DNA of 8,641 nt from Synergistaceae bacterium (GTDB lineage Bacteria; Synergistota; Synergistia; Synergistales; Synergistaceae). This document shows positions 93 to 8,641 of this stretch, in pieces. The notes under the pieces were generated by a model. The model worked only from the letters and a program-made list of their open reading frames with translations. It made no database searches and was not told where the DNA came from. The stretch lies in NCBI GenBank assembly GCA_028702015.1, contig JAQVPO010000045.1:1-8641 (forward strand). Reading direction: 5' to 3'. Positions within the stretch are counted from its first letter, which is position 1. Every line of letters begins with the position of its first letter. A program made the translations under genes and the position numbers.

Positions 93-2159
93 TTATGCGT
101 CAAATGATACTTTAAAATCATTCTTCTGAAAAACATAAAGTTTTTTCATAAACTCAGGATCATTCAAAAGGAAGGTGGAATGAGAAATCAGCCATTCTGC
201 ATCTTCCTTGGCATATTTCAACAATTCACTGTCCCTAAAAATATCCGCCACTTTGAAACCTGCGGCCCCATGCTGTTTTAAGCCTAGGATCTTTCCCGGC
301 CCTCTCAAAAGGAAATCAGCTTCAGCAATTTTAAAGCCATCACTTACCTTCAGCATTACTTTGAGCCTTTCAGCCACATCATCCCCGGTTTTATTAACAA
401 ACAGAACACATACTCCGCGCCTGAATCCCCTGCCTATCCTGCCTCTCAGCTGATGCAGCTGAGAAAGGCCGTATCTCTCTGGAGATTCTATCACTACAAC
501 TGAAGCCTCAGGAACATCCAGACCAACTTCAAGAACTGTTGTTCCCACAAGCACCTTTGTTGTTCCATCCCTAAATTTCCCTAGTTCGCTATTTTTATCA
601 TTTCCTGACATTTGACCATGAATATAACCTATTCCCAAAGGCCCCAAATGTTTTTTTAAAAAAGCATATCTCTTACCAACGGACACGAGCTGATCTGCCA
701 TATCATCTTCCACCCTAGGACAGATCCAGTAGACCCTGCCGCCCGCTGCAGACTCATTTATTATAAATTGCATCAGGTCCCTTATCTTGGTCAAATCTAT
801 CAATCTGGTCTCGATTTTTTTTCTTCCTTCTGGTTTTTCGGTAATAAATGAAACATCCATATCACCGAACAGACAGACAGCAACCGTTCTTGGAATAGGC
901 GTCGCCGACATCATTAAAAGATGAGGATTTTTCCCTCTGCTCAGCATTTCTCCTCTTTGCATCACCCCAAACCGCTGCTGCTCATCTATTATGACAATTC
1001 CTAAATTATCGAACTCTACACCTTCCTGTATCATTGCATGTGTTCCTACAACGACCTGAGCCTGTCCTGTCTTTATCGATCTTATCAGATGGATCCTTTC
1101 CGGTCTGCCTTGCCCACCCTTGAGCAGGACAGAGGTTATTCCGGCATGATGAAGGAGTTTTTGCGCCTGGGAGTAAAGCTGCTCTGCAAGGATCTCTGTT
1201 GGAGCCATCACAGCTGTCTGTATGCCTGCGTCAGCACCTGCGGCCGCAAGACCAAGTGCTATGACAGTTTTGCCTGAACCGACATCGCCCTGCAACAGGC
1301 GTGACATGGGATGTCCATCCTTGGTGTCTTTAAATACCTGTGTAAAAACCGCTTTTTGAGAATCCGTTAGTTCAAAGGGCAGGGACTCAATGAATTTTAA
1401 AAAACTTGATCCCGTTGGCTTGATTTTTGCTGCTTCATTAGATTTTTTCAGCCTTTCTCTTCTTAGGATCAGAGATATCTGAAGAAAATAAAACTCTTCG
1501 TAGGCGAGTCTTTTACGGGAAGCTTGCCAGTGTTCTTCTGAATCAGGCCTGTGCATTCCAATGATGGCTTCCCTTATTCCCAGTAACCCCCTTTTTTCTA
1601 TAATGCTGTCAGGAATATATTCAGATACAAGAGGAATATTTTCTTCTAAAATTCTGGACATCAGCGTCTGCAACCACCTGGCAGACAAACCGGACGTCGA
1701 TGGATAAACTGGTACTATACCTGTAAATTTATCGACATCTGAACTATTTTTTAATACTTCAAAATCTGGATTTGAAAATTCTATCTTGCCATTACCAAAA
1801 GAAGGATGTCCGGAAATAGCTATCGGCGTCCCTTGTTTTAATATATTATCAAGGCCTTTTCTGTTGAACCAGACTATTGATACAGTACCTGTGCCGTCTT
1901 TCGCTTCACACAGACAGATGTAAGTGCCGCTCCTGAAGCTTCTTTTGGAACTGACGCTTATTATCCTCGCAATTACTACCGAACTCTCATTCTCCCGAAG
2001 TTCAGAAATCTTACGTATTTCTCTCCGATCCACATATTTTCGCGGGAAAAACCAGAGAGCATCGTTTATCGTAAAAATGCCCAATTTCTCCAAAAGCCTG
2101 GCTCTGCCAGGCCCTATACCCTTGATATTTGTAACCGGCCTGTAGATATCTCCTGTCAC
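93..2159 (-). CDS. recG: ATP-dependent DNA helicase RecG
   Basis: RecG is a cytosolic double-stranded-DNA translocase that remodels stalled replication forks and branch-migrates Holliday junctions. The 688 residues match the family's usual length. A helix-hairpin-helix-like N-terminus (NIKGIGPGRARLLEKLGI, 11-28) leads into the wedge/OB-fold (about 55-150), which grips the branched DNA. The helicase core shows Walker A GDVGSGKT (291-298), the Walker B/motif II box DEQQRFGV (392-399), motif III SATPIPRT (418-425), VGTTVLEVGLDVP (538-550) and motif VI QLHQLRGRIGRG (567-578). DFLLRGPG (615-622) is the C-terminal RecG signature. The box reads DEQQ where E. coli and B. subtilis RecG have DEQH. The GTG start is the only start codon before an in-frame stop upstream; an AGGGG lies 16 bases upstream, which is long spacing. 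The start is 7 bases after the divIVA stop, so the two genes are probably cotranscribed. Confidence 0.98.
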   Translation of the reverse strand: MTGDIYRPVTNIKGIGPGRARLLEKLGIFTINDALWFFPRKYVDRREIRKISELRENESSVVIARIISVSSKRSFRSGTYICLCEAKDGTGTVSIVWFNRKGLDNILKQGTPIAISGHPSFGNGKIEFSNPDFEVLKNSSDVDKFTGIVPVYPSTSGLSARWLQTLMSRILEENIPLVSEYIPDSIIEKRGLLGIREAIIGMHRPDSEEHWQASRKRLAYEEFYFLQISLILRRERLKKSNEAAKIKPTGSSFLKFIESLPFELTDSQKAVFTQVFKDTKDGHPMSRLLQGDVGSGKTVIALGLAAAGADAGIQTAVMAPTEILAEQLYSQAQKLLHHAGITSVLLKGGQGRPERIHLIRSIKTGQAQVVVGTHAMIQEGVEFDNLGIVIIDEQQRFGVMQRGEMLSRGKNPHLLMMSATPIPRTVAVCLFGDMDVSFITEKPEGRKKIETRLIDLTKIRDLMQFIINESAAGGRVYWICPRVEDDMADQLVSVGKRYAFLKKHLGPLGIGYIHGQMSGNDKNSELGKFRDGTTKVLVGTTVLEVGLDVPEASVVVIESPERYGLSQLHQLRGRIGRGFRRGVCVLFVNKTGDDVAERLKVMLKVSDGFKIAEADFLLRGPGKILGLKQHGAAGFKVADIFRDSELLKYAKEDAEWLISHSTFLLNDPEFMKKLYVFQKNDFKVSFDA

Positions 2160-2166
2160 GGATAGC

Positions 2167-2808
2167 TCAGTTGTTCCCCTCTCTGCCTGGGTCGTTTTCC
2201 ATTATTTCTTTTGGATTGACCCCAAGCATAGCATAGGCAGCTTCAAGATCGCCCTTGTCAACAGAAGAGACTGATTCCATTTCCATTTCATTTGGATAAT
2301 CATCTTTTGCCGGAACCTCTTCAAGGATAGAATTGACCGCTGAAGTGATAGTGGAAGAGTTTATGCTCTGATTAAGCATATTATCAAATTTTGCAAGCAA
2401 ACCCCTGAACTCCTGCTCGTAAAGATTTCTTACATTACGGATCTGTGAGACCCCGTCACGAAGACGCTCCGCCTCCTGGGCTGCATCCCTGCATATAATA
2501 TCTGCTTTTTCCCTTGCATCTGATATTATTTGTTCAGCTTGCGCCTGAGCACTTTTAACTTTTTCATCTGCGCTCTTCTGGGCCATAAGCAGAGCTTCAT
2601 GAAGCACATCTTTCATTCTCTCATACTCTGCAAGGCTTTCCTCTTTCAGATGCAGATCTCTCTCGAGATCTTTCGTTTTTTGAGCATATACCTGCAGTGT
2701 CTCTGCAACATTATCAAGAAATTCATCTACTTCTGCCGAATCATAACCTCGCATGCTTTTCTTGAAAGACTGGTTGACAACATCCAAAGATGTCAAAAGT
2801 TCCAGCAT
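2167..2808 (-). CDS. divIVA: DivIVA-family cell-pole/division protein
   Basis: DivIVA proteins form coiled-coil oligomers that bind strongly curved membrane at poles and septa and recruit division, chromosome-anchoring or wall-synthesis partners. The N-terminal lipid-binding domain is clear: LTSLDVVNQSFKKSMRGYD followed by AEVDEFLDNV. The pattern matches the SFRGYD loop of B. subtilis DivIVA, but Met occupies the position of the membrane-inserting Phe17, while the following Arg is kept. A long charged coiled coil rich in Ala, Glu, Lys and Gln runs from about residue 25 to 145, then an acidic, Ser-rich tail. I chose the ATG at 2808 (213 residues) over the ATG at 2820 (217), because AAGGATGGTGGG (2813-2824) lies 4 bases upstream of the former but overlaps the latter. 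The start also matches the family, which begins a few residues before L-T-x-x-D. recG follows 7 bases downstream. Confidence 0.93.
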   Translation of the reverse strand: MLELLTSLDVVNQSFKKSMRGYDSAEVDEFLDNVAETLQVYAQKTKDLERDLHLKEESLAEYERMKDVLHEALLMAQKSADEKVKSAQAQAEQIISDAREKADIICRDAAQEAERLRDGVSQIRNVRNLYEQEFRGLLAKFDNMLNQSINSSTITSAVNSILEEVPAKDDYPNEMEMESVSSVDKGDLEAAYAMLGVNPKEIMENDPGREGNN

Positions 2809-2886
2809 AAAACCCACCATCCTTATTGAAAATAAAAGCTCTATAAATCAAATCGATATATTTTATAAAAATTTACCATGCTACCA

Positions 2887-2915
2887 ATTATACAAGAGAA
2901 CCCACATTTTAAACT
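2887..2915 (-). promoter_or_regulatory. Candidate divIVA-recG promoter
   Basis: On the minus strand a perfect TATAAT -10 box lies at 2892-2887, preceded directly by TTG. The region 16-17 bases upstream reads GTTTAA/AGTTTA, a poor -35 box. Transcription would start near 2880, leaving about 70 bases of leader before the divIVA ATG at 2808. It is the best match to a housekeeping promoter in this gap, but the DNA is AT-rich and TATAAT also occurs by chance. Confidence 0.4.
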
Positions 2916-2944
2916 CCTAAAGAAAAATACGTCCGCTCGTTTTT

Positions 2945-2972
2945 AAAAAAGGCCGTTTACCGTGGCCAAAAA
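2945..2972 (-). terminator. Weak hairpin plus T-run, possible terminator
   Basis: On the minus strand GGCC (2967-2964), a 9-base loop and GGCC (2954-2951) are followed at once by TTTTTT (2950-2945). The position between the ATP-grasp gene run and the divIVA promoter suits a rho-independent terminator. However, the stem is only 4 bp and is also preceded by TTTTT, so it would be a weak one. Confidence 0.25.
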
Positions 2973-3111
2973 TCGATAATAATAATAATTGTAATATGGC
3001 CTCACACAGCAAACATATCTGTCATAAAAGCAGTCAAACGTATTCTTTGTAAACTTCATAACCAAAGGGGCGTATTTTTAACAAAATCATTGCTAATCAT
3101 TGTTCAATATT

Positions 3112-3204
3112 CTATTTTCCGGATAGTTTCTGTACGTTTTTAAAAGGAGAAACGACCCTTACAAAGCACTTTGACCCAAAATCTGCCGGATCAGATAATT
3201 CCAT
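3112..3204 (-). CDS. Possible 30-residue peptide, coupled to ATP-grasp gene
   Basis: A short reading frame starts ATG one base after the TGA of the upstream ATP-grasp gene (TGA-T-ATG) and ends TAG at 3114-3112. The last codons of the ligase gene supply a well-placed Shine-Dalgarno, AAAGGA, 5 bases before the ATG, so translational coupling is plausible. The peptide begins MELSDPADFGSKCFVRVV and ends with VQKLSGK: one cysteine, mixed charge, no signal peptide and no membrane segment. Codon use resembles the neighbours. I do not recognise it. It could be a small accessory peptide, a substrate of one of the ATP-grasp enzymes, the remnant of a longer gene, or chance. It lacks the Thr/Asp/Glu-rich core typical of graspetide precursors, which argues against that class. 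Confidence 0.35.
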   Translation of the reverse strand: MELSDPADFGSKCFVRVVSPFKNVQKLSGK

Positions 3205-3205
3205 A

Positions 3206-4315
3206 TCATCCTTTATAATAGTTCGTTCCAGCATATTCTCTTCTTCTCTTTGCTTCTAATAAAAGCTTTTTGTAGATACCATTTTCAAAGGTCCCGCAAA
3301 GCGCCTGTATAATGTGAAAAGCAGGATTCCGTAAATTATACTCAATAAGTACTGGTGCTCCATCTTTATCAATAGCAATGTCCCACGCGATTAGTCCAAA
3401 GTAAGGAAGCTGAGGATGCAGTTTTTTGATAGATCTGACTGCCTTTTGGTAGAACTGGATAAGCACATTGGGGTCACTGATCATCTTTTCTGTGCCTTCA
3501 ACGATCCTTCCCGCCAAGTTAAGCCCCGGACCTGATATGGACCCATTTTCTTTTACACAAAAAGCAAAACCTCCCCCTGAGATATTGTCAACTACCGAGC
3601 CAGGCATACCAACTCTTAATATTGCCAACAATATATATACATCAACACCGTCAAACCAGCTCATGACCCTAAATGTATTCACAGAGGACTTGTTAAATTT
3701 TGAGAACGCATCATGTTGTTCAACTTTCTTTTGGATCAGATAATCAGAGGAATAGTCATCAAATATCAACAAAAACTCCTGTTTCAATGTATAAAGCCTG
3801 ATATTTTTACCCTTTCCTGAATCCAGTGTGGGTTTTGCTATAAGGGTTTCTTCTTTTTCAATAAGCTTAAAAGCTTCATGAATATCAATCCTGTTATAGC
3901 TGTTATCGTAGAATATCCCATTGATATTGCGGACTAAGGTATGGGGCGTTCCTATGCATTTAAACCGAAAACGGCTGTCATAATAGGCTTTATCTGCCCA
4001 CGCAAGTGATAACCTTGAATTATTAAATTGATTTAAAATCTGGTGGTTCATAACGCACTCTGGAACACAGGAAGGGGAAAAGATCCCTGTTACTTCATAA
4101 TACCAGCGGTGAAAATAATAATCATTTAGTACTAGCCCGTAATTTTTATACCAAGCATCTATTTCATCTTTCTGAGACTTGCTAAGCAAAGGAAGCAAAG
4201 CCCCGTCCTGATGTTTCAGCCCTTTTCTGAGTGAAGCTCTTTTTCTGTAATTTATATATATTTTTTTGACAGGCTGGAGTATCCTTTGAGGTGAAGACAA
4301 GCTACTTAGAGTCAT
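3206..4315 (-). CDS. ATP-grasp ligase, sugar-transfer-associated type (divergent)
   Basis: This is a soluble ATP-grasp protein of about 369 residues resembling the ATPgrasp_ST group (PF14397) found in surface-polysaccharide clusters. Visible motifs, counted from the ATG, are: the nucleotide-binding Lys in LIAKP (158-162), a glycine loop DSGKGKN (165-171), the hinge YLIQKKVEQH (192-201), SSVNTFRV (210-217), SVVDNISGGGFA (240-251), AWDIAID (310-316) and the metal-binding strand VLIEYNLRNP (322-331). The N-terminal third is basic (YRKRASLRKGLKH) and lacks catalytic motifs. Compared with its paralogue at 5564-6682 it lacks the HPDTG segment and ends the metal-binding strand with NLRNP rather than NSAQG, so its substrate probably differs. 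The start could be ATG 4315 or the TTG just before it at 4318; GGAGAGG lies 14 and 11 bases upstream respectively. The acyl acceptor is unknown. Confidence 0.85.
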   Translation of the reverse strand: MTLSSLSSPQRILQPVKKIYINYRKRASLRKGLKHQDGALLPLLSKSQKDEIDAWYKNYGLVLNDYYFHRWYYEVTGIFSPSCVPECVMNHQILNQFNNSRLSLAWADKAYYDSRFRFKCIGTPHTLVRNINGIFYDNSYNRIDIHEAFKLIEKEETLIAKPTLDSGKGKNIRLYTLKQEFLLIFDDYSSDYLIQKKVEQHDAFSKFNKSSVNTFRVMSWFDGVDVYILLAILRVGMPGSVVDNISGGGFAFCVKENGSISGPGLNLAGRIVEGTEKMISDPNVLIQFYQKAVRSIKKLHPQLPYFGLIAWDIAIDKDGAPVLIEYNLRNPAFHIIQALCGTFENGIYKKLLLEAKRRREYAGTNYYKG

Positions 4316-4395
4316 CAAACAGCATCGTTCCTCTCCGCTAGTATTTTAAGCATCTTTTAAGAGACAAAGACAGATTTCACTTAAAGCAAGAAATA

Positions 4396-5418
4396 CTATT
4401 CTGTAAGAGGAAAAACTTTTACAGCATCCTTGTATTTATGTGAAATCACTCCATATTTCTCCTTAAATATCTCCTGAGCCACTGACTCTTTCTTAATCCA
4501 TTTTACTATTGCCAAAGGGAGATCTGCTCCTGCAAGATGACTGAAGTAGTATCCCCCTCCAAACCTCGGATTCATTTCCAGCAAGTAAGGTGTGTCTCCT
4601 TCCATAAAAAGATCCACATCTAGATTACCTATGTGTCTGATCCTACCGCTTAAAAAAGATCCCAATTTCTTCAAAATGTCGCTGTCTATTACTTCTCCGC
4701 ACTCTGTAGAACCTGAACGCATTGAATATTTGATTTTAACTATTGAATTCCGGTAATTCGCGTTGAGGTCATTTATCACATCCATACCATATTCCTGTAC
4801 ATCAAGTTTCTGCTGTATCAGGACATTGTTATCATTAGGGCCATCTGTTTCATATCGGAGATCCGATGACATAATATTTTTACGGGTCTTTTTGAAAAAA
4901 GTCAGCAGCTCGTCCTCATCATCCGCTTCGAATATATACAATGAACCGTGCCCCCATCTAGGCTTAACTATCAAAGGGAATGAGATTATATTCTTCTCAA
5001 TATCATACAAAGCATCTTCCACCGAGAGATATGTCTTCGGAGTCCTGATATCATTCTTTAAACAAAAACCATAGGTTTGCCATTTGTCGCAGCATATTGA
5101 GACAGTATCTATATCTGAAACTAATACTTTTATTCCTGCTCTTTCAAAAAGACTTTTGTTGAGAGAAAGAGGCCTTAGATCTGCATCTGAGAAAGGTATC
5201 AGCGCCTCTATCTGATTTTCAGTGCAGTAATTCAACAGGAATGCAATGTAATTTTCTTCATGTGGTTTAGGAGAGACGATACTCACGTCAGCAAACTGGA
5301 ATACTGGCGACTTGCTGCTACTGACTGCTGCATGAAGACAGCCAATGCCATCGAGAGCTTTTTTAAAATACCGGAGCAAGCATACTGCGCTGCCGACTGA
5401 AGTAAGCAGTAAGTTCAT
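4396..5418 (-). CDS. ATP-grasp ligase, carbamoyl-phosphate-synthetase/PylC-like
   Basis: The 340-residue protein has the three-part layout of carboxylate-amine ligases. The N-terminal pre-ATP-grasp domain starts MNLLLTSVGSAVCLLRYF and carries PFSDADL (75-81). A linker holds DKWQTYGF (111-118) and TPKTYLS (126-132). The ATP-grasp domain has FPLIVKPRWGHGS (147-159), the hinge VLIQQKLDVQEYGMDV (199-214), GNLDVDLF (264-271) and the Mg-binding LLEMNPRFGGGYYFSHLAG (279-297). Proteins of this kind form amide bonds through an acyl-phosphate and often sit in capsule, peptide or antibiotic clusters. It is cytosolic, with no signal peptide. The start is well supported: GAGGTGA (5425-5431) ends 6 bases before the ATG. 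The gene lies between two sugar-transfer-type ATP-grasp genes, 77 bases before the next and 145 after the previous. The specific substrate cannot be read. Confidence 0.9.
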   Translation of the reverse strand: MNLLLTSVGSAVCLLRYFKKALDGIGCLHAAVSSSKSPVFQFADVSIVSPKPHEENYIAFLLNYCTENQIEALIPFSDADLRPLSLNKSLFERAGIKVLVSDIDTVSICCDKWQTYGFCLKNDIRTPKTYLSVEDALYDIEKNIISFPLIVKPRWGHGSLYIFEADDEDELLTFFKKTRKNIMSSDLRYETDGPNDNNVLIQQKLDVQEYGMDVINDLNANYRNSIVKIKYSMRSGSTECGEVIDSDILKKLGSFLSGRIRHIGNLDVDLFMEGDTPYLLEMNPRFGGGYYFSHLAGADLPLAIVKWIKKESVAQEIFKEKYGVISHKYKDAVKVFPLTE

Positions 5419-5529
5419 TTGCTCTCACCTCTTTATGTATATTTAAAATAAGAATCAAATATAACCTGCTAGAAATTCCAATCGTTTATGTTCACACAGA
5501 CGGAAGGTTATTGTTGACTGTAAGTTATA

Positions 5530-5559
5530 TTCAGTAATTATAAATATATTTTTACTGAA
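5530..5559. repeat. 8-bp perfect inverted repeat between ligase genes
   Basis: TTCAGTAA (5530-5537) and TTACTGAA (5552-5559) are exact reverse complements around a 14-base AT-only spacer. The element lies immediately past the stop of the 5564-6682 gene. On the minus strand it is not followed by a T-run, so it is not a standard terminator. It could be an mRNA-end hairpin or an operator. A TATAAT on the minus strand overlaps one arm (5542-5537) but no -35 box matches it. Confidence 0.4.
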
Positions 5560-5563
5560 GCAG

Positions 5564-6682
5564 CTAAAAACCGTTTTGTGATCTTATTCCCTTTCTTTTC
5601 AGCAATCTGGAGAAATACCCCCTCAGCCTTTCATCCCATTCATTAGTTGTCCTGTTAAGCCCCTGAGCTGAGTTTATTTCAATAATTTTAAAGCCATCAG
5701 CAGTTACAGCAACATCAAACCCCATATATTCGATCTGCGGGATATGCCTGCATATTTTTAATATTCCATCCTGAAGAAGCTGCCAGTTTGGCATAATACC
5801 TTCCAGTCTCATCCCGGTATCAGGATGCACAGTATGCTTAAGAAATTCTTTGTTTTTTGTGATCTCGAACCCTCCGTTGAAGTATCCAGTTTTTATGTTG
5901 ATCCAGCAGCTGATACCCCCAGAGGATATATTGTCTACAAAACCTGACCGTTTTGTACCGAATTTGATGGCCCCCTCTCCAATGAACGGATCATCTCCGT
6001 TCTCGTTTACTACCTTCAGTCTTATCGTGTTAAGAGAACAGGGATAGATTCTTTTTAATTCTTCATGCATCTCTACGTATTCGGTAATTATAAAACCGTT
6101 CTTTGAGAGCAGCAGTTCACATATTCCATTTTCATCAATCTCTTTGTCGTTTACCGTATATCGTAACGATTTAAATCCTAGTTTAGTAAAGCCTGAGCCA
6201 AATGCCCCTGAGACAGGCTTTAAGGCCAGTTGCTCTTTTGCCTTAAGCAGCTTTAAAATACTTCCTATATCAGATGATAATCCATCAGGACAATCCATTA
6301 GTTTAAGAATTTTGTTAGGATTTCCCTTTAATAAATGGAAATAATATTCCGGCATGCAGTCGCTGTATTTTGACAGGACATATTTGGTTGTAAGTTTGTC
6401 ATCTATCCAGAAAACAAACTTACCATTGATTGGAAATAATCTCATATAATCATAGTCTGACAGGAACCTGCTCAAGTTTTTGCTGTTGAGTCCAACCTGA
6501 TCTATCCTTCTCGAAAGGAATCCATGTCTGTATGCCCAGATTTTTTGACCTGCAGAGCAGGTTTTATTCCGTTTTGCATCCCTGTAGATCATCATTATCC
6601 ATTTTCTCTGATATTTGAGCTTAATATTATTTTTTATCCGTCTATACTTTTCTTCTCCCAGCATGGTTTTGATACTGCACAT
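5564..6682 (-). CDS. ATP-grasp ligase, sugar-transfer-associated type
   Basis: This 372-residue soluble protein matches the ATPgrasp_ST pattern (PF14397) well. Before the catalytic domain is a family-typical segment FLSDYDYMRLFPINGKFVFW followed by IDDKLTTKYVLSKY (about 73-106). Motifs counted from ATG 6682 are: ALKPVSGAFGSGF (153-165, nucleotide Lys and glycine loop), the hinge ITEYVEMH (199-206), CSLNTIRL (215-222), SGFVDNISSGGIS (246-258), HPDTG (286-290), GFDVAV (321-326) and the metal-binding IIEINSAQG (333-341). The reading frame extends upstream to a TTG at 6748, but only the ATG at 6682 has a good Shine-Dalgarno (GGAGG at 6690-6694, 7 bases away); ATG 6688 is too close to it. Proteins of this group accompany glycosyltransferases in capsule-type loci and are thought to link an amino acid or similar carboxylate to a sugar precursor. 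That role is inferred here from family and context. Confidence 0.9.
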   Translation of the reverse strand: MCSIKTMLGEEKYRRIKNNIKLKYQRKWIMMIYRDAKRNKTCSAGQKIWAYRHGFLSRRIDQVGLNSKNLSRFLSDYDYMRLFPINGKFVFWIDDKLTTKYVLSKYSDCMPEYYFHLLKGNPNKILKLMDCPDGLSSDIGSILKLLKAKEQLALKPVSGAFGSGFTKLGFKSLRYTVNDKEIDENGICELLLSKNGFIITEYVEMHEELKRIYPCSLNTIRLKVVNENGDDPFIGEGAIKFGTKRSGFVDNISSGGISCWINIKTGYFNGGFEITKNKEFLKHTVHPDTGMRLEGIMPNWQLLQDGILKICRHIPQIEYMGFDVAVTADGFKIIEINSAQGLNRTTNEWDERLRGYFSRLLKRKGIRSQNGF

Positions 6683-6773
6683 ACTCATCCCTCCATAAAG
6701 ATTCTTCTGCTGCATAAGCTCTCTTCTTATTAGGCTCAGGACATACAAATGGAATACACCTAGTTACAGTAAA

Positions 6774-7973
6774 TCATTCGACAAGCACCTGTATCCATTT
6801 ATCTTGCACATCTGCCATTTCAAGCATTTCTGTCATTGAGCTGAATTTCATCAGAAATATACCTATTGCAGCATTGGAGTACATATATGGCTTGATAATG
6901 TCACCTGGCTGCTGGTTGAAATAAGATTCAATTATGTTGTTCTTTTTGACATTACTGTCGATACGGATATCTTTAAGAACACCCTCTTTATATGAATGGA
7001 CAGCAAAGTATCCGCAGAATCCTCTTGGCTCAGTAAATCTGAGTTCGCTGCAGTCTTCGCCAAGCGCAGCCTTTATCGTATATTCGACCAGATCTGTGCC
7101 TGTGAGAAATTCGATGACCTGGGGAATATAACATCCGCCGTTTCGGGGACCTATTTCAATTATGTATATCTTACCGTCTTCAGCTACGCGGATGTCAAAA
7201 TTATAGGCTCCTGTCTTCATTTGAAGCAGAGATATCAATCGTTGTATTTCTTCATGGACCTTAGCCTGTATTTCTGAGGACATTATGGATGGAAAGGTTG
7301 CCGCGACTGGAACAAATGGATTCAAATTTGCAGGATCAAAGTGATCATTTCCAAAACATCTGAATACCAGCTCGCCATCAACAGAAAAACCGTCACCTGC
7401 GACCTGGTATGAATCAATATTTATGCATTCTTCAATAATTATACGTTTTTCTCTTGAGAAAGCCTGCGCTTTTTCGAACGCTTCCTTTAGTCCATAAATA
7501 TCAGATATTAATGAAATTCCCTTGCTGCCAGATGAATCAACTGGTTTTACAAAAACTGGAGGGCTGAAAAACATAAAGTCATTCACAGCTGTTTCGTACG
7601 AATAATATCCTTTAGCCTTAGGCGCATTAAAACCATTCTTCGTCAGAAAAGATCGGAACTGATCCTTCTTCGAAAGTATCTCAACCGACCTGTAAGGGCT
7701 GGTAGGAAGATCCATCTGCTCTGCGACATAAGCTGCAGTAGATGCTGACGGATCAGATGCATATGAAACGATACCATCGATATTAAGTTTTTTTGCAAGA
7801 TTAAGAATTGATTCTTTGTCTGTTGTGCTTATATTATAGTATTCATCTGAATAATGATGTCCCGGATTATCCGGCAGGTAATCACAGGTAATGACATGAC
7901 AGCCAAGTTTTTTGGCGGAGAGGATACATGGGATCTGTTGTCTTGATGCACCAAGAAGAATAATCTTTTTCAT
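6774..7973 (-). CDS. ATP-grasp ligase, L-amino-acid-ligase/PurK-like
   Basis: The 399-residue protein opens with a Rossmann-like pre-ATP-grasp domain (MKKIILLGASRQQIPCILSA, then HVITCDYLPDNPGHHYSDEY) typical of L-amino-acid ligases and PurD/PurK relatives. The ATP-grasp domain has VFVKPVDSSGSKGIS (140-154, nucleotide Lys and glycine loop), the hinge IIIEECI (178-184), VAGDGFSVDGEL (191-202), AYNFDIRV (256-263) and the Mg-binding YIIEIGPRNGG (270-280). A C-terminal lid (about 315-399, beginning GYFAVHSYKEG) resembles the biotin-carboxylase-like end of amino-acid ligases. Such enzymes join two amino acids, or an amino acid to an amine, using ATP. The frame extends to a TTG at 8015, but GGGAGGG (7979-7985) 5 bases before ATG 7973 decides the start. 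It is the first gene of the four-ligase run, 91 bases before the next, and probably has its own promoter in the 273-base gap upstream. Confidence 0.9.
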   Translation of the reverse strand: MKKIILLGASRQQIPCILSAKKLGCHVITCDYLPDNPGHHYSDEYYNISTTDKESILNLAKKLNIDGIVSYASDPSASTAAYVAEQMDLPTSPYRSVEILSKKDQFRSFLTKNGFNAPKAKGYYSYETAVNDFMFFSPPVFVKPVDSSGSKGISLISDIYGLKEAFEKAQAFSREKRIIIEECINIDSYQVAGDGFSVDGELVFRCFGNDHFDPANLNPFVPVAATFPSIMSSEIQAKVHEEIQRLISLLQMKTGAYNFDIRVAEDGKIYIIEIGPRNGGCYIPQVIEFLTGTDLVEYTIKAALGEDCSELRFTEPRGFCGYFAVHSYKEGVLKDIRIDSNVKKNNIIESYFNQQPGDIIKPYMYSNAAIGIFLMKFSSMTEMLEMADVQDKWIQVLVE

Positions 7974-8246: not shown

Positions 8247-8641
8247 TCAACATACTAACAAAAACCTCAGAAACAAACGATACGCATGAATATATATTTT
8301 ACTTTTTATATAATTAACTTCACTACACAAAGCATAAAATATATTCATGTCTTTCATTTTAAGTTTCCTCTTAATACGGAAACTGCGAACCTTGCATTTT
8401 AAAGCCATAAATTCTGTAAAAGGGCAATATTTACTATGAATATTTACAGCAAATTCTTTATACATATCTGACATGGCCTTCTGCTGATTTATTTGTTTTT
8501 GACCAATCCCATCTCCGATTTCTGAAGTCCATGATCCTGGAACGCCTGTACGGTAATCAGCCATATTGTCATGAAAATAAAAAACGCTGCCCTTGCTTGC
8601 CAGAAAAAGATGGAGCGGGACATCTCCCACAGGAGCATGGA
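8247..8641 (-). CDS. Family-2 glycosyltransferase, C-terminal part (cut by window edge)
   Basis: The reading frame is open to the window edge, so the first codons and the nucleotide-sugar-binding domain lie outside. The first visible residues are HAPVGDVPLHLFLASKGSVF, then YFHDNMADYRTGVPGSWTS. This is the end of a GT-A family-2 catalytic domain: GDVPL supplies the acceptor-side catalytic Asp region, and the M-x-x-Y-R...GSWT stretch is typical of family-2 transferases in surface-polysaccharide clusters. After it comes a basic, hydrophilic tail of roughly 80 residues and a hydrophobic end (YRLFLRFLLVC) that may contact the membrane. The GTG at 8630 is internal (Val of PVGDVP), not the start. 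Its donor sugar and acceptor are unknown. The adjacent ATP-grasp genes suggest a glycan decorated with amino acids or peptides. Confidence 0.8.
   Translation of the reverse strand, partial: HAPVGDVPLHLFLASKGSVFYFHDNMADYRTGVPGSWTSEIGDGIGQKQINQQKAMSDMYKEFAVNIHSKYCPFTEFMALKCKVRSFRIKRKLKMKDMNIFYALCSEVNYIKSKIYIHAYRLFLRFLLVC

What the first reader, a model, noticed from the sequence alone, without database searches (positions are those of the whole stretch)
3206..7973. Four consecutive, mutually divergent ATP-grasp ligase genes behind a glycosyltransferase
Four adjacent same-strand genes each carry a complete set of ATP-grasp motifs (nucleotide Lys plus glycine loop, hinge, E-x-N or E-x-G-P metal strand) yet belong to three sub-branches: amino-acid-ligase-like, sugar-transfer-associated (twice) and carbamoyl-phosphate-synthetase/PylC-like. 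The motifs are seen directly; that such enzymes form acyl-phosphate-dependent amide or ester bonds is known. The inference is a pathway that successively adds amino acids or other acids to a surface glycan precursor, or builds a small peptide attached to one. An uninterrupted set of four with no transporter, aminotransferase or modifying enzyme between them is unusual.
Basis: partly seen in the sequence, partly recalled or inferred. Interest (0 to 1): 0.72.

Follow-up and report, generated by a model that had tools for sequence, protein, structure and literature searches.

The report
Four-ligase sugar-decorating gene island
Squeezed into a spot where nearly all examined relatives carry nothing, this bacterium has a run of four different, intact ligase genes behind the end of a sugar-transferase gene; they are predicted to hang amino acids or similar small acids one after another on a cell-surface sugar, a known kind of chemistry in an uncommonly long and apparently swappable set.

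Summary
Window 3206-7973 (minus strand) encodes four consecutive full-length ATP-grasp proteins: two sugar-transfer-associated (PF14397), one PylC/CPS-like, one L-amino-acid-ligase-like. Their main catalytic residues are nearly invariant across homologs, so none looks dead. The gene before them is the end of a GT2 protein. New here: the quartet sits in an island before divIVA, where 47 of 50 examined loci of the same family have yggS directly upstream, including all 7 other genomes of the genus. One other genus (G016) fills the slot with a set sharing the GT2, the PylC-like ligase (there fused to an acetyltransferase) and the last ATP-grasp, but with an aminotransferase, a PLP enzyme and an AMP-ligase-like protein instead of g4-g3. 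Elsewhere g4-g3 relatives are direct neighbours in 4 of 26 named loci, and a DegT aminotransferase (DesI-like where tested) stands beside such a ligase in 5 of 26. I read it as an exchangeable cassette that aminoacylates a surface-glycan sugar stepwise; substrates, and whether the four serve one pathway, are not shown. The quartet was not found elsewhere, and g1-type genes elsewhere in the phylum are mostly single. The idea is in print in general form: a new variant of a known kind.

The parts
8247..8639 (-). 3' end of a GT2-type glycosyltransferase gene, cut by the contig end
   Evidence: 57% identity over 124 aa to the G016 protein that directly follows yggS; that protein has PF00535, 75.6 bits
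6774..7973 (-). g4: L-amino-acid-ligase-like ATP-grasp, 399 aa, ATG start behind a purine-rich stretch
   Evidence: Pfam; profile matches to solved 4dim (178 bits), L-amino acid ligase 3vot (117.9), BacD, 4wd3; catalytic columns; start context
5564..6682 (-). g3: sugar-transfer-associated ATP-grasp (PF14397), 372 aa
   Evidence: 112.1 bits; start set by homologs; model pLDDT 92.1; best fold matches ArgX/RimK
4396..5418 (-). g2: PylC/CPS-like ATP-grasp, 340 aa
   Evidence: PF21360 60.5 bits; 56% identity to the G016 slot protein that is fused to a GNAT domain; closest solved sequence 2pn1, 219 bits
3206..4318 (-). g1: second sugar-transfer-associated ATP-grasp (PF14397), about 370 aa; start uncertain (TTG 4318 or ATG 4315)
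   Evidence: 96.1 bits; 43% identity to the gene in the same place of G016; model of its last 330 residues pLDDT 91.2
2167..2820 (-). divIVA, right border of the slot
   Evidence: PF05103 111.3 bits; in 47 of 50 family loci it directly follows yggS
93..2159 (-). recG, conserved downstream neighbour of divIVA
   Evidence: PF17191, PF00270, PF00271; recG match beside divIVA in all 30 loci fetched with downstream sequence (L076-L083, L101-L122)

Best explanation
The four ATP-grasp genes are the visible part of an island that fills a slot before divIVA, and they likely form an exchangeable cassette that activates amino acids or other small carboxylic acids with ATP and would join them, step by step, to a sugar of a surface-glycan precursor handled by the GT2 enzyme in front of them. 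Proposed order (inferred): the amino-acid-ligase-like g4 and the PylC-like g2 each make an amide, first on an amino sugar or its nucleotide form; the RimK/LysX-like g3 and g1 extend or branch it. The result would be an aminoacyl or short-peptide side chain on a lipopolysaccharide-type glycan, built without ribosome or tRNA. Shown: gene order, families, intact catalytic residues, a slot that is empty in most relatives, the shared frame with G016, the g4-g3 pairing elsewhere. Inferred: that yggS lies beyond the contig end, substrates, order of action, target glycan, and that all four serve one product.
Against: No aminotransferase lies in the window; of 11 DegT-family hits in this genome the three strongest were examined and none is DesI-type (genome 65.5% complete). 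The quartet recurs nowhere in the material examined; of 185 genomes in the phylum, own genome included, 3 have a g3-type match at E 1e-20 and 9 a g1-type match at 1e-12, and none of the other g1-type loci fetched has a second ATP-grasp directly beside it by my profiles (G016 has its PylC-like gene two genes away). No flippase, polymerase or transporter is visible. In the fold lists Ddl/VanA-type ligases, CPS and pyruvate carboxylase come within about 2 Z units of the top, so the fold does not single out amino-acid addition. The GC difference is small. Substrates cannot be read from these data.
Confidence: 0.5

Rival explanations
1. The slot is a landing place where ligase genes pile up, and the four act separately, each decorating a different sugar or position, rather than as one successive pathway.
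For: G016 keeps g2 and g1 relatives without g3 and g4; g4-g3 relatives occur without g1- or g2-type genes within the fetched stretch in L064, L066, L067, L075; in the other fetched phylum loci the g1-type gene has no ATP-grasp neighbour; G004 holds a shortened g1 relative at another place.
Against: All four are on one strand with gaps of about 77-145 bp and no terminator-like site on their strand between them; paired contig lengths suggest that g3 goes with g4 and, once, with g1.
Confidence: 0.3
2. The set makes a free or secreted small peptide (bacilysin-like or other L-amino-acid-ligase product), not a glycan decoration.
For: g4 is closest in sequence to L-amino acid ligases among solved proteins with a ligase name (3vot, BacD, 4wd3); in G124 a g4-like and a g3-like gene lie with a class I aminotransferase and a GNAT-like ORF (20.3 bits, cut-off 20.7), flanked by a TrkA-N protein and an ADP-ribosylglycohydrolase, not by sugar genes among the neighbours scanned.
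Against: GT2 directly in front, shared with the G016 slot; PF14397 twice; DegT sugar-aminotransferase-type neighbours in relatives; no exporter among the window's scanned ORFs.
Confidence: 0.12
3. The ligases modify proteins or a ribosomal peptide precursor (RimK-, TTL- or graspetide-like).
For: The folds of g3 and g1 are RimK/LysX/TTLL6-like, and the g1 profile has weak sequence matches to TTL, TTLL6 and a Ddl (15 chains at E 0.1, one under 0.001).
Against: No plausible precursor among ORFs of 25 aa or more in the five gaps around and between the four genes (judged by eye); a GT2 lies in front here and in G016; divIVA and recG are core genes before which yggS normally sits.
Confidence: 0.05

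Closest known systems
Cj1438 (C-terminal TupA-like ATP-grasp amidoligase beside a GT2 domain), Campylobacter jejuni capsule; PMC11800379, passages read
   Same: An ATP-grasp enzyme linked to a GT2 that makes an amide on a sugar of a surface polysaccharide.
   Different: One ligase, TupA family (g2 reaches only 14.7 bits in PF14305, cut-off 25), amine donor serinol-P or ethanolamine-P onto a uronic acid; here four ligases of other families and an unknown sugar.
Linked ATP-grasp/GNAT peptide-ligase operons described by Burroughs, Zhang and Aravind 2015 (PMC4431377, passages read)
   Same: They state that linked peptide ligases often do successive ligations, O-antigen and teichuronopeptides included, and posit GNAT capping; G016 has a PylC-like+GNAT fusion.
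   Different: They treat the R2K clade; the families here are PF14397, PylC-like and LAL-like, four in a row, in a slot before divIVA.
L-amino acid ligases (BL00235 3vot, BacD, 4wd3)
   Same: g4 profile aligns with 3vot over most of its length, with an E-x-G-x-R strand in both.
   Different: PF18603 C-terminal domain only 18.0 bits against a cut-off of 29.4; sugar-locus context.
ArgX/LysX/RimK amino-acid-adding ATP-grasp enzymes
   Same: Best fold matches of the g3 and g1 models.
   Different: 14-20% identity in the top rows; the g3-led profile matches no solved sequence at E 0.1, the g1-led one only weakly.

Membership tests
PF14397 sugar-transfer associated ATP-grasp (g1, g3) | Profile score over the gathering cut-off | tested here: met
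   96.1 and 112.1 bits, cut-off 31.4
PF14397 sugar-transfer associated ATP-grasp (g1, g3) | ATP-grasp catalytic residues kept | tested here: met
   60 of 60 and 34 of 34 rows at the listed columns, one g3 column 59 of 60
PF14397 sugar-transfer associated ATP-grasp (g1, g3) | Sugar-transfer gene in the neighbourhood | tested here: met
   GT2 fragment in the window by homology to G016
L-amino acid ligase (g4) | Sequence relation to LALs of known structure | tested here: met
   3vot 117.9 bits, BacD about 61-62, 4wd3 58.5
L-amino acid ligase (g4) | LAL C-terminal domain PF18603 over cut-off | tested here: not met
   18.0 bits, cut-off 29.4
L-amino acid ligase (g4) | Dipeptide-forming activity | not testable with these tools
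   needs an enzyme assay
PylC/CPS-like ATP-grasp (g2) | PF21360 over cut-off | tested here: met
   60.5 bits, cut-off 27
PRK12767 carbamoyl phosphate synthase-like (NF009404) | Equivalog cut-off | tested here: not met
   289.9 bits, cut-off 316
TupA-type capsule amidoligase | PF14305 over cut-off | tested here: not met
   Only g2 listed at E 0.1, 14.7 bits against 25
Graspetide cluster | Precursor peptide gene next to the ligase | tested here: inconclusive
   No plausible precursor by eye in the five gaps checked, but the contig ends inside the locus
Complete O-antigen/capsule locus | Flippase and polymerase genes | tested here: inconclusive
   None among the window ORFs scanned, but the contig ends inside the locus
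4-amino-4,6-dideoxy-sugar aminoacylation | DesI-like aminotransferase in the same genome | tested here: inconclusive
   Three strongest of 11 DegT hits score best as PseC-, LegC- and ArnB-like; the other 8 not examined; genome 65.5% complete

The most novel reading that the evidence does not exclude
A four-ligase, tRNA-free assembly line writes a defined short peptide onto a sugar of the cell's outer glycan, carried as an exchangeable 'decoration cassette' in the yggS|divIVA slot: the GT2, the PylC-like ligase and the last PF14397 ligase stay, while the middle (g4-g3 here; PLP enzyme, AMP-ligase-like protein, GNAT and aminotransferase in G016) is swapped, changing the surface antigen.
Probability: 0.27. 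Interest if true: 0.62.

Novelty: new variant of a known kind. Interest (0 to 1): 0.4.

Why it matters
PF14397 enzymes occur in many lineages, the two here have no clear solved relative by sequence, and I know of no assayed member (recall). This locus gives a small testable set: intact genes, confident fold models of the amino-acid-ligase type, recurring partners (4-amino-sugar-type aminotransferase, GNAT) and an empty-site comparison. If right, it shows how bacteria build peptide-like branches on surface sugars and exchange them as cassettes.

Tried and rejected
Loss of catalytic residues: rejected. Chance or mis-called ORFs: rejected (full-length, family-conserved proteins). Assembly chimera: unlikely, since G016 carries a partly homologous island with the same borders; not excluded by reads. 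Graspetide precursor: none seen in the window's gaps. Named genomes with close g3 relatives: the first genome-contig scan found none; the 26 loci of the second reach 41% identity at most. Plasmids: 7 of 72,556 records hold a distant g3 relative, 25-32% identical, so no support for plasmid carriage. Papers: seven searches (titles and abstract starts seen, lists capped at 10-25 rows) showed me no paper on such a quartet; the full PF14397 name is in 0 held papers. The 2009 amidoligase survey by Iyer and co-workers is recalled only (not held). One search (Synergistetes and O-antigen) gave nothing used. My guess that the phylum is Synergistota is recall; no call names it.

Limits: ORFs under 80 aa (90, 100), and those overlapping a longer ORF by more than 40%, were dropped in the scripts; a DegT-profile hit under 60 bits was relabelled (one, in L057). 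Only chosen neighbours were Pfam-scanned: 20 proteins and 9. The 26 named loci come from two short patterns in g3, so the neighbour counts are not a random sample. Where I give 'to the eye' for a gene, no tool supports the name; two such guesses (a flippase in L163, a transposase in L036) had no Pfam match when checked and are dropped.
Full report
What is there. All the main genes lie on the minus strand in this order: end of a GT2 protein (8639-8247), g4 (7973-6774), g3 (6682-5564), g2 (5418-4396), g1 (4318-3206), divIVA (2820-2167), recG (2159-93). Between them lie only short gaps (91, 145 and 77 bp) and no terminator-like site on their strand.

Intact or not. In alignments of 60 (g3), 34 (g1), 23 (g4) and 5 (g2) rows, the two lysines, the arginine, and the acid and E-x-N columns (E-x-G/A/S-P-R in g4) listed in the observation check are invariant or nearly so (residue roles recalled from the ATP-grasp literature). 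The g4 variant matches the E-x-G-x-R strand of the L-amino acid ligase 3vot in the HMMER alignment, so it is not a loss. Exception: g2 column 245, chosen as the aspartate, is D in 3 of 5 rows, which may be misalignment.

The slot. In the other 7 genomes of the genus yggS lies 129-221 bp before divIVA. In the family, 51 of 52 genomes gave a divIVA match; 50 loci were examined (G059, at a contig edge, was not), and 47 have yggS at 33-421 bp. The three without are the window, G016, and G043, whose contig ends before it. The G016 yggS used as query passes TIGR00044 (178 bits, cut-off 106). G016 holds between yggS and divIVA: GT2, a PALP enzyme related to the D-cysteine desulfhydrase/ACC deaminase group, a 433-aa protein weakly like AMP-dependent CoA ligases (65 bits, cut-off 300), a PylC-like ATP-grasp fused to GNAT, a DegT aminotransferase, and a PF14397 ATP-grasp. 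Its GT2, PylC-like and PF14397 proteins are 57%, 56% and 43% identical to the window's. So both islands share a frame and differ in the middle. That yggS also borders the window's island on the far side is inferred: the contig ends first. Island genes are poorer in GC than the flanks in both (0.35-0.40 against 0.43; 0.34-0.43 against 0.50-0.53).

Wider occurrence. g3: 229 homologs at E 0.001 (120 listed), the nearest 11 at 66-70% identity and without informative source names. g4: 6960 homologs at E 0.001 among the 7998 candidates scored (120 listed), nearest 8 at 71-76%, then a broad family at 53-65% with Clostridium and Bacilli among the few named. g1: 42 homologs, 13 at 56-75%. g3 and g4 homologs come from contigs of the same lengths (16585, 36157, 78800, 7769, 15559); g3 and g1 share 4184. 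I take these as same contigs (inference), which would mean that g3-g4 travel together, often without g1. In 185 genomes of the phylum, own genome included, g3-type matches at E 1e-20 occur in 3 and g1-type at 1e-12 in 9. Of the seven g1-type loci fetched from G108, G113 (two), G114, G119 and G163 (two), none has a second ATP-grasp directly beside it by my profiles; two of them lie near a contig end, and in L161 a g1-type gene and a shorter relative lie 5 kb apart. G109 (L147) holds one, near the contig end. This counts against a conserved four-step pathway.

Partners. Among 26 named loci found with g3, the longest same-strand run of ATP-grasp ORFs is 3 in one (L060, with a truncated first ORF), 2 in nine, 1 in sixteen, 4 in none. 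g4-g3 or g3-g4 neighbours: L064, L066, L067, L075; g2-g3: L062. DegT is in 9 of 11 loci with a g4-type gene and 5 of 15 without (Fisher p 0.02; loci not independent), and directly beside a ligase in L057, L058, L062, L064 and L075. Five DegT proteins, from L035, L057, L062, L064 and L075, score best against PLP_DesI, below cut-off, and the two compared with the PDB match 2po3 best. GNAT-type genes flank L054 and L057 members. G124 has aminotransferase, g4-like, a no-Pfam 435-aa protein, a GNAT-like ORF (20.3 bits, just under the 20.7 cut-off) and g3-like genes in a row.

Mechanism. The commitment is stepwise amide formation on a sugar of a surface-glycan precursor, with g4 and g2 as amino-acid or small-acid ligases and g3 and g1 as RimK/LysX-like extenders. 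The chemistry (acyl phosphate, then attack by an amine) is established for the superfamily (recalled). Precedent on a capsule sugar: Cj1438 (PMC11800379, passages). The general idea of linked peptide ligases acting in succession, O-antigen included, with GNAT capping, is printed in PMC4431377 (passages), and an ATP-grasp domain predicted to put amino acids or peptides on cell-surface polymers of certain animals in PMC2824669 (passages). PMC11915815 was looked at in passages only and adds nothing decisive.

What speaks against it. No aminotransferase or flippase in the window; the three strongest of 11 DegT hits in this genome are of other types; relatives keep parts of the set without the rest; the fold matches do not single out amino-acid addition. 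The pile-up rival therefore gets 0.3.

Verdict. A real and uncommon arrangement whose chemistry class is known: new variant of a known kind, interest 0.4.

Noticed in passing
L036 11774-12574 (G004 C3): A shortened g1-type PF14397 relative (62% identity, N-terminal part missing; a further piece with one stop follows), while the same genome's yggS|divIVA slot is empty: looks like a decaying copy elsewhere. The ORF before it (10723-11883) has no Pfam match.
   Followed up: partly
L146 4368-10590 (G124): Class I aminotransferase, g4-like ATP-grasp, a 435-aa protein without Pfam match, a GNAT-like ORF and a PF14397-like ATP-grasp in a row, next to an ADP-ribosylglycohydrolase gene (PF03747): possible small-molecule or protein-modifying version.
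   Followed up: partly
L053 6643-11119 (Eggerthella sinensis), also L050 and L056: Proteins of 670-890 aa with PF14397 at the C-terminal end behind a roughly 400-580-aa N-terminal part that matches no Pfam family at E 0.001; two such genes adjacent in L053.
   Followed up: partly
L066 10992-11942 and L067 10992-11939: A 315-316-aa protein directly after the g4-g3 pair in both loci, without Pfam match at E 1e-5; the L066 copy has no NCBIfam match either.
   Followed up: partly
L086 3-2013 (G000 C197, contig end): ArnB-like aminotransferase piece beside an ArnT-type protein (PMT_2 66.8 bits, Arnt_C 40.2 bits); with kdsB on C250 it suggests lipid A/LPS modification in this genome.
   Followed up: partly
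L037 131-14860 (G008 C7): Surface-polysaccharide-type cluster with a UDP-galactopyranose mutase (PF03275), a flippase-type protein (PF13440), a DegT aminotransferase and two g4-type ATP-grasp genes (39% and 28% identity to g4).
   Followed up: partly
window 2821-3205: 385-bp gap between g1 and divIVA without a convincing ORF; the yggS-divIVA gap is under 140 bp in 45 of the 47 loci measured, so extra island sequence or a regulatory stretch may lie here.
   Followed up: no
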